From the NCBI RefSeq assembly GCF_023516715.1, contig NZ_JAMGSI010000001.1, positions 1,240,001 through 1,304,000 on the forward strand: 64,000 bases of DNA. The letters are read 5' to 3'. Below the pieces are notes generated by a model. That model was not told where the DNA came from. It did not search any database and was given only the letters and a program-made list of their open reading frames with translations. Positions 58,974 to 64,000 of the stretch are shown here, in pieces; the stretch's first letter is position 1; the number at the start of each line of letters is the position of its first letter. The translations under genes were made by a program, and so were the position numbers. This DNA comes from Akkermansia massiliensis (GTDB taxonomy: Bacteria; Verrucomicrobiota; Verrucomicrobiia; Verrucomicrobiales; Akkermansiaceae).

Positions 58974-59627
58974 TCATTTTCCTGCCGATTTTCCGGAAAA
59001 AGCCTCGCGCCACGGGTCATCCAGCTTGCCCGGAACGCTTTCCAGCTCCCGGAGGATTTTCTCCCGCTCACGGGAAATGCGCTCCTGGTCCGCGGGGTCC
59101 GGCGCGGGGGCCTCCCCGGGCACCGGCAGCAGCCCGTCCGGCGTTTTGCCGCCGTCCGGGGAAATCGGCGGGGTGACCTCCTTGCCGTCTTCATCCGTCC
59201 CCGGTTCCGGATTGTCCGGGTCCGGGTTATCCTTTTTTCCGGAGCTTTCCGGAGCGGCCAGGTTCCGGTACAGGAACACCAGGTCCCCTGCCTCCACGGC
59301 TCCGCTGCGTATGTCCGCCGGAATGCGCGCCCGGCCCATACGTTCCTCCGTCACGATCAGGTTCGCGACCCTGCGGTTTTCCTCCCTGCCCGGAGACTGG
59401 GAAATGAGCACGGTTCCCGGCTCGTAAACGTTCCCGGCCAGCGCAATGAGCACATAGTTGTGGCTGGGGTACACCTGCTCCACCTTCCCCACGTACACGG
59501 GAGGCCGGGCGGTCTTTTTGACGGGCCGCACCTGCTGGGAGCAGGAGGCGCCCAGCAGCGCGAACGCCGCCAGAGCAGGCAGGGAAAGGATTCGTTTCAT
59601 GGGGAGGGGCTTTTCTCGTCGTTTCAT
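58974..59627 (-). CDS. Lipoprotein of unknown function, coupled to ftsK
   Basis: 217 residues with a lipobox (ALLGASC, Cys about 29), so membrane-anchored on the outer side. A compact beta domain (VGKVEQVYPSHNYVLIALAGNVYEPGTVLISQSPGREENRRVANL, DIRSGAVEAGDLVFLYR) is followed by a long Pro/Asp/Gly-rich linker (about 130-185) and a charged C-terminal helix. The ATG at 59627 overlaps the ftsK stop (ATGA); ATG 59600 is the alternative with a shorter signal. Role unknown; linkage suggests envelope or division function. Confidence 0.7.
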   Translation of the reverse strand: MKRREKPLPMKRILSLPALAAFALLGASCSQQVRPVKKTARPPVYVGKVEQVYPSHNYVLIALAGNVYEPGTVLISQSPGREENRRVANLIVTEERMGRARIPADIRSGAVEAGDLVFLYRNLAAPESSGKKDNPDPDNPEPGTDEDGKEVTPPISPDGGKTPDGLLPVPGEAPAPDPADQERISREREKILRELESVPGKLDDPWREAFSGKSAGK

Positions 59628-62149
59628 TCCACCAGCACCTTGCGCGGACGGTTGGTATTGTCCGCCGGGGCAATGATGCCGCGGGATTCCAGCAAATCCA
59701 TCATGCGCGCCGCGCGTCCGTACCCGATGCTCAAACGCCGCTGCAGCAGGGACGTGCTCACCTTGCGCTCAATGACAGCCACTTCCAGGCATTTGGCGTA
59801 GCATTCCTCCTCCGCGTCGTCCAGCGGGCTGTCCGCCCCTCCGCGGGAGGGTTCGTCCAGGGATTTCTGAACCTCTTCATGGAATTTCTGCCTGGCCTGG
59901 GAGGCGCAGTGGGCTACCAGGGCTTCCACTTCGTCATCGGAAATAAAGGCGCCCTGCGCCCGCTCCACCTGGGCGGAACCCGGCGGCAGGTACAGCAGAT
60001 CGCCCTTGCCCACCAGTTTTTCCGCGCCCTGCCTGTCCAGAATCACGCGGCTGTCCGTGCCGCTGGCCACCTGGAAGGCGATGCGCGTGGGAATATTGGC
60101 CTTGATCGTCCCCGTCACCACCTGCCTTCTGGGCGTCTGCGTCGCCACAATGAGGTGGATGCCCGCGGCGCGGGCTTTCTGGGTCAGGCGGCCGATGTTC
60201 GTTTCAATGTCCGCGCCCACCGTCTGCATCAGGTCCGCAAGTTCGTCAATGATGATGACGATGTAGGGGAAGCGTTCAGGGATGACGCCGTCGTCCTCCA
60301 GGTCCAGTTCATCATCCTCTTCCGCGGGCCATTCCCCCTGGGATTCCAGGTCACGGGCAATGGATTCCGCCAGGGCTTCATCCACCTCCCCGTCTTCCGG
60401 TTCCTCCGCCTCTTCCGCAGGCGCGTCCGGCGGCCGCTTGTTGAAGGCTTCAAAGTTGCGCACGCCCACCTTGGCAAAGCAGTGGTAGCGGTGCTCCATT
60501 TCATTCACGCACCAGCGCAGGGCATTGGGCACTTTCTTGGGGTCCGTCACCACCGGCACAATCAGGTGCGGCAGCTTGGAATAAGGCTGCATTTCCACCA
60601 CCTTCGGGTCCACCAGGATGAGCCTGAGCTCATCCGGCCGGAATTTCAGGAGCATGGAGGAGATAATGCTGTTGATGCACACGGATTTGCCGGACCCGGT
60701 GGCCCCGGCCACCAGCAGGTGCGGCATGGATGCCAGGTCCCCGATCACGGTGCGGCCATACACGTCCTTCCCCAGGGCCAGCGGTATTTTCTTCTTGGGG
60801 GAGCAGAAGCCGGGGTCCTGCAAGAGTTCCCGCAATGGCACGGCCACCTTGTTGCGGTTGACGATTTCAATGCCCACCGTGTCCTTGCCCGGAATGGGCG
60901 CCACGATGTTCACGCTCTCCGCCTTCGTCGCCAGCGCGATGTCCTTCGCATACTGGTCAAAGGTGTTCACGCGCACGCCGCGCGCGGGGTAAACTTCATA
61001 GCGGGTGATGGTCGGGCCGCGGGTAATGTCCCCCGGCGTCACGTCCACGCGGAACGTCGTCAGGGTATCAATGATCTTCTGCTGGATTTCCAGCATTTCA
61101 TCCTTGTCCTCTTCCGTAGGGCCTTCCGGCTTTTCTTCATAATGCAGCAGCTCAAACGGAGGAAGCTCGTAATCCCGGAATTCCTCCGTAGGCGGCGTGG
61201 ACAGTTTGGAGAAAGGCTGCTCCCTGGGAGCGGGCTTGATTTCCGCCGGCTTCGCCACGGTAATCCTGGGGCGCGGCGTCAGCGGAAGATGCCCCTGCGT
61301 ACGCGGTGCGCGGGGGGCGGGAGCGGGGTCTGCGGACCTGGCAGGGGAAGCCGCGGCCACTTCATTATATAAGCCTTCCAGGTCGTCCCCGGTGCGCTGC
61401 AGGCGGGGAGAGGATGCCCTGCCCTTTCCGGCCGGCCTGGGGGCGGACAGGGCCGCATCTTCCATGCTGGCCCTCACGCGCGCCGCCTCCCTGGCAAGCT
61501 GCGCGGACTGGCGCGCCATTCTTTTCTCCTTCCTGTTCATGCGCCAGGCGCGCCACTCCCGCAGCATGGCGCGGAACAGCGGGCGGGGATGCATTCCCGC
61601 GGCATAAACCAGGGCCAGCAGATAGCCCAGCCCGGAAAGAACCAGCACGGCGGACGTGCCGGTCAACGGAAGAAGCAGCCCCGTTCCCAGCAGATGTCCC
61701 GCCAGGCCGCCGGCGCCCTGAATCTGGTGGCGCGCCACCCATGCGTCACCCGGCACATGCCCGGCCGTCAGGAACAGGCAGCCGAACAACAGCAGGAAAA
61801 GGCCGCCGTACACCACGCTGCGGGGCAGACTTCCACGGTGCAGCAGACGGTAAAGCCCCCACCATTCCAACAGAATGACCAGCATCCAGGCCATGCCGCC
61901 CAGCGCCCAATAAAGAATCCCCGCGCCGTACAATCCCGCCACGCCCAGCACATTGGAGGTGCCCGGAATCACCTGACCGGAATCATTTAAATAACTCCAG
62001 CCTATTTCCCGCACGTCAAACGTCAGCATGGCCGCAAGCAGCGCAGCCCCGCCCAGCAGGGACACGACGCCCCACGCCATTCCTATCCAAACAGGGGGAC
62101 GCCCCTCTTCACGCTCAAATGCATGATGCTCCTGCACATCCAATGCCAT
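59624..62149 (-). CDS. ftsK: DNA translocase FtsK/SpoIIIE
   Basis: 841 residues. Four to five N-terminal TM helices (about 15-190, beginning VSLLGGAALLAAMLTFDVREIGW), a Pro/Ala-rich linker (about 190-310), then the motor: the alpha domain with TITRYEVYPARGVRVNTFDQYAKDIALA, Walker A ending at Lys488 (GATGSGKS), and the conserved TGTIKANIPTRIAFQVASGTDSRVILDRQGAEKLVG. The C-terminal winged-helix gamma domain (ECYAKCLEVAVIERKVSTSLLQRRLSIGYGRAARMMDLLESRGII) recognises chromosomal KOPS-type sequences. It pumps the terminus region during division and aids XerCD dimer resolution. Confidence 0.97.
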   Translation of the reverse strand: MALDVQEHHAFEREEGRPPVWIGMAWGVVSLLGGAALLAAMLTFDVREIGWSYLNDSGQVIPGTSNVLGVAGLYGAGILYWALGGMAWMLVILLEWWGLYRLLHRGSLPRSVVYGGLFLLLFGCLFLTAGHVPGDAWVARHQIQGAGGLAGHLLGTGLLLPLTGTSAVLVLSGLGYLLALVYAAGMHPRPLFRAMLREWRAWRMNRKEKRMARQSAQLAREAARVRASMEDAALSAPRPAGKGRASSPRLQRTGDDLEGLYNEVAAASPARSADPAPAPRAPRTQGHLPLTPRPRITVAKPAEIKPAPREQPFSKLSTPPTEEFRDYELPPFELLHYEEKPEGPTEEDKDEMLEIQQKIIDTLTTFRVDVTPGDITRGPTITRYEVYPARGVRVNTFDQYAKDIALATKAESVNIVAPIPGKDTVGIEIVNRNKVAVPLRELLQDPGFCSPKKKIPLALGKDVYGRTVIGDLASMPHLLVAGATGSGKSVCINSIISSMLLKFRPDELRLILVDPKVVEMQPYSKLPHLIVPVVTDPKKVPNALRWCVNEMEHRYHCFAKVGVRNFEAFNKRPPDAPAEEAEEPEDGEVDEALAESIARDLESQGEWPAEEDDELDLEDDGVIPERFPYIVIIIDELADLMQTVGADIETNIGRLTQKARAAGIHLIVATQTPRRQVVTGTIKANIPTRIAFQVASGTDSRVILDRQGAEKLVGKGDLLYLPPGSAQVERAQGAFISDDEVEALVAHCASQARQKFHEEVQKSLDEPSRGGADSPLDDAEEECYAKCLEVAVIERKVSTSLLQRRLSIGYGRAARMMDLLESRGIIAPADNTNRPRKVLVE

Positions 62150-62483: not shown

Positions 62484-62666
62484 CGGATTGCAAATCCTAT
62501 CAAAATAATAGGGTACGATAAATTCCATCATAACACACTTAATTACATATATTTATATACAGAAAACAATAGTTTGAGTTAAATTTTTTTAGTTTTTTAA
62601 GGCGCGGGAATGATAAATAAGTATTTTTTCTTTAATGATTACTATTGACATCGGATTTGCAATCCG
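62484..62666. repeat. 14-bp inverted repeat, candidate invertible segment
   Basis: CGGATTGCAAATCC (62484-62497) and GGATTTGCAATCCG (62653-62666) are exact reverse complements, 155 bp apart. Each is itself a near-palindrome around a three-base centre. The segment between them is AT-rich. The arrangement matches phase-variable promoters that precede surface polysaccharide operons in gut bacteria, but paired operators for one dimeric regulator would look the same. Confidence 0.6.
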
Positions 62667-62673
62667 GTAACTC
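62645..62673 (+). promoter_or_regulatory. Sigma-70-like promoter across the right repeat
   Basis: TTGACA at 62645-62650, a spacer of exactly 17 bp and then TAACTC at 62668-62673 (a weak -10). The spacer contains the right copy of the inverted repeat, so the -35 lies inside the putative invertible segment and the -10 outside it, close to the sugar transferase start at 62687. Confidence 0.45.
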
Positions 62674-62686
62674 TGCCGCGCCGCTT

Positions 62687-63379
62687 ATGTACATACATAT
62701 CTGCAAACCGTTTCTTGGAAGCCTCCTTGCCGGAATAGCTCTCATCATCCTCATTCCGCTGCTGCTGACCGTTTCGGTACTTCTTGTACTTTCTACAGGG
62801 AAATCCCCGTTTTTTCTTCAAACGCGCGTAGGGTACAGGGGAAGACTGTTCAAGATCATCAAATTCAAAACGATGAACGACCGGAAGGATGAAAACGGGC
62901 AGCTCCTGCCCGATGAGCAGAGGCTGTTCCCGCTGGGGCGCTTCCTCCGCAGCTCCTCCCTGGACGAACTTCCCCAGCTCATCAACATCCTGAAGGGTGA
63001 CATGGCTTTTGTGGGCCCCCGTCCCTGGATTCCGTCCCAAATGGCCGCGTTCCCGCCCAACTACTGCCGGAAGCGCTGCTCCGTGCGTCCCGGCATCACC
63101 GGCATGGCCCAGATCCACGGCCGCAATGGCATCCCCTTCTGCCGCCGCCTTTGCTATGACCTGATCTACGTCCAGAACGTCAATCTGAGAATGGATCTCT
63201 CCCTCCTTTTCCAGACGGCCCGCACGGTCGTCATCCGTGAAGGAATCCAGCAGTGCAACGAGGCGTTCCAGAGCAAGCTGGGGCAGACCCTCGTTCATAA
63301 CGACCTTTCCCTGCCCTCCTCCCCCCCTTCCCAGAAGATCATTCTGAATACCTCCATCCAACCTCTCTCCAACCAATGA
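62687..63379 (+). CDS. Sugar-1-phosphate transferase initiating exopolysaccharide synthesis
   Basis: 230 residues: one N-terminal hydrophobic segment (about 10-36), then the bacterial sugar transferase domain. Motifs are KFKTMNDRKDENG (58-70), the catalytic Asp93-Glu94 in SLDELPQLINILKGDMAFVGPRP and RPGITGMAQIHGR. It is the short, monotopic type (PglC/PssA-like), which transfers a sugar phosphate from a nucleotide sugar to undecaprenyl phosphate, the first step of a capsule or exopolysaccharide repeat unit. The TTG frame extension to 62645 is not used. The stop overlaps the next gene by four bases. Confidence 0.92.
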   Translation: MYIHICKPFLGSLLAGIALIILIPLLLTVSVLLVLSTGKSPFFLQTRVGYRGRLFKIIKFKTMNDRKDENGQLLPDEQRLFPLGRFLRSSSLDELPQLINILKGDMAFVGPRPWIPSQMAAFPPNYCRKRCSVRPGITGMAQIHGRNGIPFCRRLCYDLIYVQNVNLRMDLSLLFQTARTVVIREGIQQCNEAFQSKLGQTLVHNDLSLPSSPPSQKIILNTSIQPLSNQ

Positions 63380-64000
63380 ACATCAACAACCTAATCAGCA
63401 AAGCCGCCCTCTGCTCCGCAGCGCTGGCCGCTTCCTCCCTCCTGCCCTCCTGCGTCAGCCCCAAGGAAGTCCTGTATATCCAGGACGTCTCCGGACAGAC
63501 CAATGAAAAGATCAAGGGGAATTACCAGACCGTCATCCAGAAGGACGACCAGTTATCCATCACCGTCAGCAGCAAGCAGCCTGAACTGGCCGCCCCCTTT
63601 GCCGTCTCCGAAATAGGGTCCAGCAGCCAGGGCACCAGCTCACGAAAGGGTTACCTGGTGGACGCCAACGGCTACATCGTCCTGCCGGTCATCGGAAAGA
63701 TCAAGGCGGCCGGCAAGACCTGCTCCCGGCTGGGGGATGAAATTGCCGCCACCCTGCGGAACAGGGACTACATCAGCGACGCCTCCGTCAACGTCCAGAT
63801 CACCAACTTCAAGTTCTCCGTCCTGGGTGAAGTGGCCTCCCCGGGCACCTACAACGTGGACGGCCAGCGCCTGACGATTCTGGAAGCCCTCAGCCGCGCC
63901 GGAGACCTGAACATCGACGGCAACCGGGACATCACCCTGATCCGTGAAACCAACGGACGCCGCCAGATCGCCACCGTGGACCTCCGCAGCAAGGACCTCT
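63376..64000 (+). CDS. Polysaccharide export lipoprotein (Wza-like), 3' end missing
   Basis: The first 208 residues are in the window. A lipoprotein-type signal ends at SLLPSC (Cys about 26). The poly_export domain follows (LYIQDVSGQ, YQTVIQKDDQLSITVSSKQPELAAPF, YLVDANGYIVLPVIGKIKAAGKTCSRLGDEIAATLR, SVNVQITNFKFSVLGEVASPGTYNV), then the start of an SLBB domain (LTILEALSRAGDLNIDGNRD). It should form the outer-membrane secretin-like channel for the polysaccharide. It is coupled by ATGA to the sugar transferase, so these two open an export operon continuing to the right. Confidence 0.92.
   Translation, partial: MNINNLISKAALCSAALAASSLLPSCVSPKEVLYIQDVSGQTNEKIKGNYQTVIQKDDQLSITVSSKQPELAAPFAVSEIGSSSQGTSSRKGYLVDANGYIVLPVIGKIKAAGKTCSRLGDEIAATLRNRDYISDASVNVQITNFKFSVLGEVASPGTYNVDGQRLTILEALSRAGDLNIDGNRDITLIRETNGRRQIATVDLRSKDL

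What the first reader, a model, noticed from the sequence alone, without database searches (positions are those of the whole stretch)
62484..62673. Possible phase-variable (invertible) promoter in front of an exopolysaccharide operon
Seen: two exact reverse-complement 14-mers flank 155 bp of AT-rich DNA. A TTGACA -35 sits just inside the right copy, with a spacer of exactly 17 bp and a TAACTC just outside it. Inversion would replace this -35 with TTGATA at a 15-bp spacing, a poorer promoter. Known: Bacteroides capsule operons are switched by promoter inversion between inverted repeats by serine or tyrosine recombinases. Inference: this exopolysaccharide operon may be phase-variable in the same way. 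No recombinase lies in the window.
Basis: partly seen in the sequence, partly recalled or inferred. Interest (0 to 1): 0.75.

Follow-up and report, generated by a model that had tools for sequence, protein, structure and literature searches.

The report
Invertible promoter switch for Akkermansia capsule
This is a flip-able stretch of DNA that most likely turns an Akkermansia gut bacterium's capsule genes on and off; the switch itself was published in 2026, but its promoter being cut in two by the flipping site, and the enzyme family that probably flips it, do not seem to have been described.

Summary
The window comes from an Akkermansia-type genome, and the element lies between ftsK and a Wzx/Wzy-type capsule operon (WbaP, Wza, Wzc). 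That is the place of the published, experimentally flipping cps1 inverton of Akkermansia (PMC13343947), with the same repeat motif, CGGATT..AATCCG. The genome holds 84 GGATTNNNAATCC sites against 0 for the reversed pattern. On contig C1 all 18 exact neighbouring pairs carry the same central trinucleotide in inverted order. So this is one of about 40 switches, not a lone palindrome.

New here: (1) In 50 of 62 invertons TTGAC begins exactly 7 bases before one site, and TA is enriched at the -10 position just outside, so the recombination site is the 17-bp promoter spacer and inversion swaps the -35. The window copy is read in the ON order, as in four relatives. (2) The genome has no serine recombinase. 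A tyrosine recombinase family (2-24 copies in each of 36 congeners) has a matched site pair upstream of its own gene in 31 of 43 cases (6 of 1720 shuffles). Best candidate for this switch: C1:576962-578101; rival: the Xer-like C1:366583. Two of seven orthologous invertons have inverted interiors between species. Flipping of this copy was not observed.

The parts
62484..62498 (-). Left recombination site (CGGATTGCAAATCCT; 14 of 15 bases matched to the right site, core TTTGCAA/TTGCAAA)
   Evidence: same sites in G004, L253 and L254
62652..62666 (+). Right recombination site (CGGATTTGCAATCCG); also the promoter spacer
62499..62651 (.). Invertible segment, A+T rich; its two inner ends are the best conserved parts between species
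62645..62650 (+). -35 element TTGACA, inside the segment and 7 bases before the site
   Evidence: fixed position in 50 of 62 invertons
62668..62673 (+). -10 element TAACTC, outside the segment; TA starts 2 bases after the site
   Evidence: TA enriched at this offset in 46 of 124 arms; TAATTC, TAATCC and TACTCA in relatives
62687..63379 (+). WbaP-like bacterial sugar transferase (PF02397, E 2e-53), first gene of the capsule operon
63376..63999 (+). Wza-like polysaccharide export protein (PF02563, SLBB), runs off the window; Wzc-like protein and GT4 glycosyltransferases follow in the genome
59624..62149 (-). FtsK, divergent upstream neighbour, same synteny as published cps1
   Evidence: PMC13343947

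Best explanation
This is the cps1 inverton of an Akkermansia species: a 183-bp element (62484-62666) whose 153-bp interior is inverted by a tyrosine recombinase acting on two 15-bp sites of the form CGGATT-NNN-AATCCG. The interior carries a -35 box (TTGACA) pointing outward at one end only. The -10 box (TAACTC) is fixed outside, and the recombination site itself is the 17-bp spacer. In the assembled (ON-like) order TTGACA stands before the capsule operon that starts at 62687. After inversion the -35 is replaced by a poor one (TTGATA at 15 bp, or TTTTGA at 17) and the operon is off. The matched core trinucleotide restricts exchange to sites with the same core. Shown: sites, genome-wide pairing, -35/-10 geometry, locus identity, inverted order of other invertons between species. 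Published: flipping and capsule ON/OFF at this locus in relatives. Inferred: flipping of this copy, promoter activity, and the recombinase (most likely the tyrosine recombinase at G000:C1:576962-578101).
For: 84 GGATTNNNAATCC sites against 0 reversed control; on C1 all 18 exact neighbouring pairs share the core in inverted order. 41 invertons read in this genome and 21 in G004; TTGAC starts exactly 7 bases before one site in 50 of 62, with 2 instances at any other offset; TA at the second base outside in 46 of 124 arms, about 8 at other offsets. TTGACNNCGGATTNNNAATCCG: 42 in this genome against 0 control, with up to 1 mismatch. Same element, sites and promoter parts in G004, L253 and L254 while the interior diverges (81-93% in L253 and L254, less in G004). 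Interiors inverted between orthologous loci for L072/L235 and L221/L234, and the TTGAC arm swapped for L217/L239. WbaP-Wza-Wzc operon beside ftsK. Published flipping and capsule correlation at this locus with the same motif. No serine recombinase.
Against: All five assemblies that hold this locus (own, G004, L253, L254, and G036 in part) are in the same order, so no inverted copy of this element was seen. No reads were available. TAACTC is a weak -10 and the inferred leader is only about 7 nt without a clear Shine-Dalgarno sequence. 8 of 41 invertons in this genome lack the TTGAC box at the fixed place.
Confidence: 0.92

Rival explanations
1. The two palindromic 14-mers are operator sites of one dimeric regulator that loops the DNA; nothing inverts.
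For: Each arm is itself a near-perfect palindrome (GGATT-TGC-AATCC) and the right arm sits inside a promoter spacer, a usual place for an operator.
Against: The core trinucleotide is free between loci but identical within each pair and in inverted order, which fits strand exchange and not a regulator with one sequence preference; interiors are inverted between species at other loci; flipping is published for this locus.
Confidence: 0.04
2. The element inverts, but the enzyme is the third Xer-like recombinase (G000:C1:366583-367623, P0007), not a member of the P0002/P0003 family.
For: It is an extra Xer-like protein with an intact H at the HxxR place and, like P0003, it has close relatives (87-88%) only in two sister genomes that are also site-rich, G004 and G036.
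Against: It has no site near its gene, its 51-53% homologues sit in site-poor genomes G014 and G033 (4-5 sites), and site-rich G013 and G027 lack it; the P0002 family has sites of this very form at its own genes.
Confidence: 0.15
3. Fossil or locked element: sites kept by descent but no active recombinase in this strain, so capsule is constitutively ON.
For: Same order in every assembly that holds the locus.
Against: The sites are kept while the interior has diverged; relatives flip it in culture, mice and humans; several full-length tyrosine recombinases with R, R, H and Y are present.
Confidence: 0.05

Closest known systems
cps1 inverton of Akkermansia muciniphila, A. massiliensis and A. biwaensis (Gracia et al. 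2026, PMC13343947)
   Same: Locus between ftsK and cps1, repeat motif CGGATT..AATCCG, capsule operon with WbaP, Wza and Wzc
   Different: Here WbaP is the first gene after the switch (Wza is first in the MucT locus). The paper as held does not describe the split promoter or name a recombinase.
Akkermansia inverton group 138 (PMC11892184) and the motif of Jiang et al. 2019 (not held; cited through PMC13343947)
   Same: Same repeat motif, many copies in one genome, a promoter-like motif, surface genes downstream
   Different: That work reports no invertase for this group in the text read; the fixed -35/site/-10 geometry and core-matching were measured here.
Bacteroides fragilis capsule promoters switched by Mpi (general knowledge; Krinos 2001 cited in PMC13343947)
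   Same: Many capsule promoters in one genome switched by inversion between short inverted repeats
   Different: Serine recombinase and whole promoter inside the segment there; here no serine recombinase in the genome, and the promoter is cut by the site.
fimS/FimB-FimE and RecV-type switches (general knowledge)
   Same: Tyrosine recombinase, inverted repeats with identical core
   Different: Single or few loci; the promoter or terminator lies inside the segment.

Membership tests
Akkermansia cps1 inverton | Lies between ftsK and the capsule operon | tested here: met
   FtsK at 59624-62149 (-), WbaP/Wza/Wzc downstream; synteny stated in PMC13343947
Akkermansia cps1 inverton | Inverted repeats CGGATT..AATCCG | tested here: met
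   62484-62498 and 62652-62666
Akkermansia cps1 inverton | Reads in both orientations | not testable with these tools
   No reads; five assemblies all in the same order
Akkermansia cps1 inverton | Orientation tracks capsule production | not testable with these tools
   Needs cells; shown for relatives in PMC13343947
Bacteroides Mpi-type capsule switch | Serine recombinase | tested here: not met
   PF00239: 0 matches in the genome
Bacteroides Mpi-type capsule switch | Whole promoter inside the invertible segment | tested here: not met
   -35 inside, -10 outside, site is the spacer
Tyrosine recombinase (PF00589) for the proposed invertase P0003 | Catalytic residues R, H-x-x-R, H/W, Y | tested here: inconclusive
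   R, R, H and Y invariant in 45 members, but the H of HxxR is D in all 45; Pfam match 46 bits over cut-off 27

The most novel reading that the evidence does not exclude
Akkermansia carries an expanding family of tyrosine recombinases (HxxR changed to DxxR in all 45 read), most members of which have an invertible element with their own version of the site (xGxxTT-NNN-AAxxCx) upstream of their own gene. One member, P0003 at C1:576962-578101, has become the general invertase for about 40 promoters, the capsule switch included. These promoters are switched by moving only a -35 box across the recombination site, which doubles as the 17-bp promoter spacer.
Probability: 0.55. Interest if true: 0.68.

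Novelty: new member of a known kind. Interest (0 to 1): 0.5.

Why it matters
The capsule switch of Akkermansia is tied to mucus association and biofilm formation (PMC13343947), yet the text of that paper and of the inverton survey names no invertase for it. This analysis gives two ranked, testable candidate genes, a site rule (matched core, which predicts which loci could recombine with each other) and an orientation rule that reads ON or OFF from any assembly. In this genome the second capsule-type locus (C1:648797) reads OFF while cps1 reads ON, as expected if capsules are switched separately.

Tried and rejected
Serine invertase: none in the genome. Recombinase next to a site at C1:177014 (P0001): its 'site' is the anticodon arm of a tRNA gene (read by eye from the sequence), and it is missing from the site-rich genomes G004, G027 and G013; rejected as an island integrase. 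Inverted copies of this locus in other genomes or viral contigs: none found; the viral scan gave two distant sugar transferases (46% and 37%). The first alignment of L032 used the wrong strand and was replaced. Papers on a known Akkermansia invertase: none found in the held library. Structure prediction was not run; it would not separate the two candidates.

Full report
What is there. Within the 64-kb window alone a 14-mer inverted pair at this distance would turn up in about 6% of shuffles (12 of 200), so the single locus is only suggestive. The genome decides it: GGATTNNNAATCC occurs 84 times in 3.28 Mb against 0 for the reversed pattern. On contig C1, where the list is complete, 36 of 45 sites form 18 exact inverted pairs 148-510 bp apart, and in every pair the central trinucleotide is the same when read in inverted order, while it differs freely between loci. 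One further 'site' on C1 is a tRNA anticodon arm. Random neighbours would share a core about once in 64.

Which organism and locus. The closest named relatives are a MAG titled Akkermansia muciniphila isolate Lapin-015 (WbaP 99% identical, L253) and an Akkermansia sp. MAG (87%, L254). Upstream is divergent FtsK; downstream are WbaP (PF02397), Wza (PF02563), a Wzc-like protein and GT4 glycosyltransferases. This is the cps1 synteny described for Akkermansia. PMC13343947 reports an inverton next to cps1 with CGGATT..AATCCG repeats, reads in both orientations, and orientation that tracks capsule in Percoll fractions; both orientations were also found in mice and in human stool. PMC11892184 found the same motif in 32 invertons of A. 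muciniphila. So the switch itself is known; the window holds another copy of it.

How the promoter works. Reading 41 invertons of this genome and 21 of G004, TTGAC begins exactly 7 bases before the site in 50 arms, never in both arms of one element, with 2 occurrences at any other offset within 40 bases; just outside, TA starts at the second base in 46 of 124 arms against about 8 at other offsets. The pattern TTGACNNCGGATTNNNAATCCG, with up to one mismatch, occurs 42, 36, 23, 46 and 34 times in G000, G004, G013, G027 and G036, 0 times in every reversed control, and outside the genus once in 22 genomes. Hence a -35 box rides on the flipping segment, a -10 box stays fixed outside, and the recombination site is the 17-bp spacer. 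That the boxes work as a promoter is inference from position and consensus. By this rule the window copy is ON: TTGACA-17-TAACTC, and TAATTC, TAATCC and TACTCA in relatives. A second WbaP locus at C1:648797-648987 has its own inverton with TTGAC at the far arm, that is, OFF.

Do they invert? Between this genome and G004, seven inverton pairs have matching flanks. Two have interiors that match better in inverted orientation (L072/L235 scores 18.5 same, 33.5 inverted; L221/L234 9.5 and 37.0), and a third has the TTGAC arm swapped although its interiors no longer align (L217/L239); the other four, cps1 among them, are in the same order. All five assemblies that hold the cps1 element are in the same order, one of them only in part. 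Flipping of this copy therefore rests on its published homologue and on the behaviour of the site family.

Which enzyme. There is no serine recombinase and there are 13 tyrosine recombinases: three Xer-like, five phage/ICE-type, one tRNA-island integrase, and a family of four, L089, L090, L092 and L093 (the grouping is by mutual similarity and general knowledge). That family is present in all 36 congeners, 2-24 copies each, and weak or absent outside the genus. Of 43 members with enough upstream DNA, 31 have an inverted pair of the form xGxxTT-NNN-AAxxCx upstream of their own start, typically near -190 and -50, against 6 of 1720 shuffled regions; of 510 control windows 10 had one, and most of these lie at inverton or recombinase loci. 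The outer bases differ between clades (AGGATT, CGGATT, CGCTTT, CGTATT, AGCATT). In G028, which has only three CGGATT sites, two of them are a pair upstream of its family member. I infer that the family recognises this class of site. Within this genome the member P0003 at C1:576962-578101, which has no site of its own, has 91% relatives only in G004 and G036, two of the three other genomes with more than 50 sites. The Xer-like P0007 shows nearly the same narrow distribution and remains a rival. These three genomes are close relatives, so the co-occurrence is weak evidence. The fourth site-rich genome, G027, lacks P0003 but has a family member with three CGGATT sites upstream. All 45 family members read carry R, R, H and Y but D in place of the H of HxxR.

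Limits. Inverton tables cover only the stretches fetched. E-values and shuffles do not correct for shared descent of upstream DNA among close members. Jiang et al. 2019 is not held and may already describe part of the promoter motif. Absence of a named invertase refers to the main texts read and to the held library only.

Noticed in passing
G027 (e.g. L204:1328-1522): This genome has 88 CGGATTNNNAATCCG sites and, unlike the others, most of those listed carry the same core (CAA), with TTGACAG before them, in a ~180-bp element where read; several lie at contig ends. Shared cores would allow exchange between loci.
   Followed up: partly
G000:C1:648797-648987 (L064): A second WbaP-type capsule locus has its own inverton, read in the OFF order while cps1 is ON.
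   Followed up: partly
G000:C2:184737-186048 (L090) and L093 at C1:1668188: Recombinase genes with their own invertible-type upstream element, which differs from the statement in PMC11892184 that invertases near invertons are generally not regulatable by them. L093 relatives are 95-97% identical in two other species, far more than the 76-77% of the cps1 region.
   Followed up: partly
G000:C1:1082960-1083151 and window 62484-62666: Two invertons share the core GCA, so a ~219-kb inversion between loci is conceivable.
   Followed up: no
G042 (16 sites, another family of the order): Has many CGGATTNNNAATCCG sites but none with the TTGAC box and no close P0002-family member: perhaps a different use of a similar site.
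   Followed up: no
window 62668-62689: The inferred transcript start lies about 7 bases before the WbaP ATG and no Shine-Dalgarno is visible, so the ON transcript may be nearly leaderless.
   Followed up: no
G000:C1:1306521-1306533: A lone GGATTTCAAATCC site inside the capsule operon, 4 kb downstream, with no exact partner.
   Followed up: no
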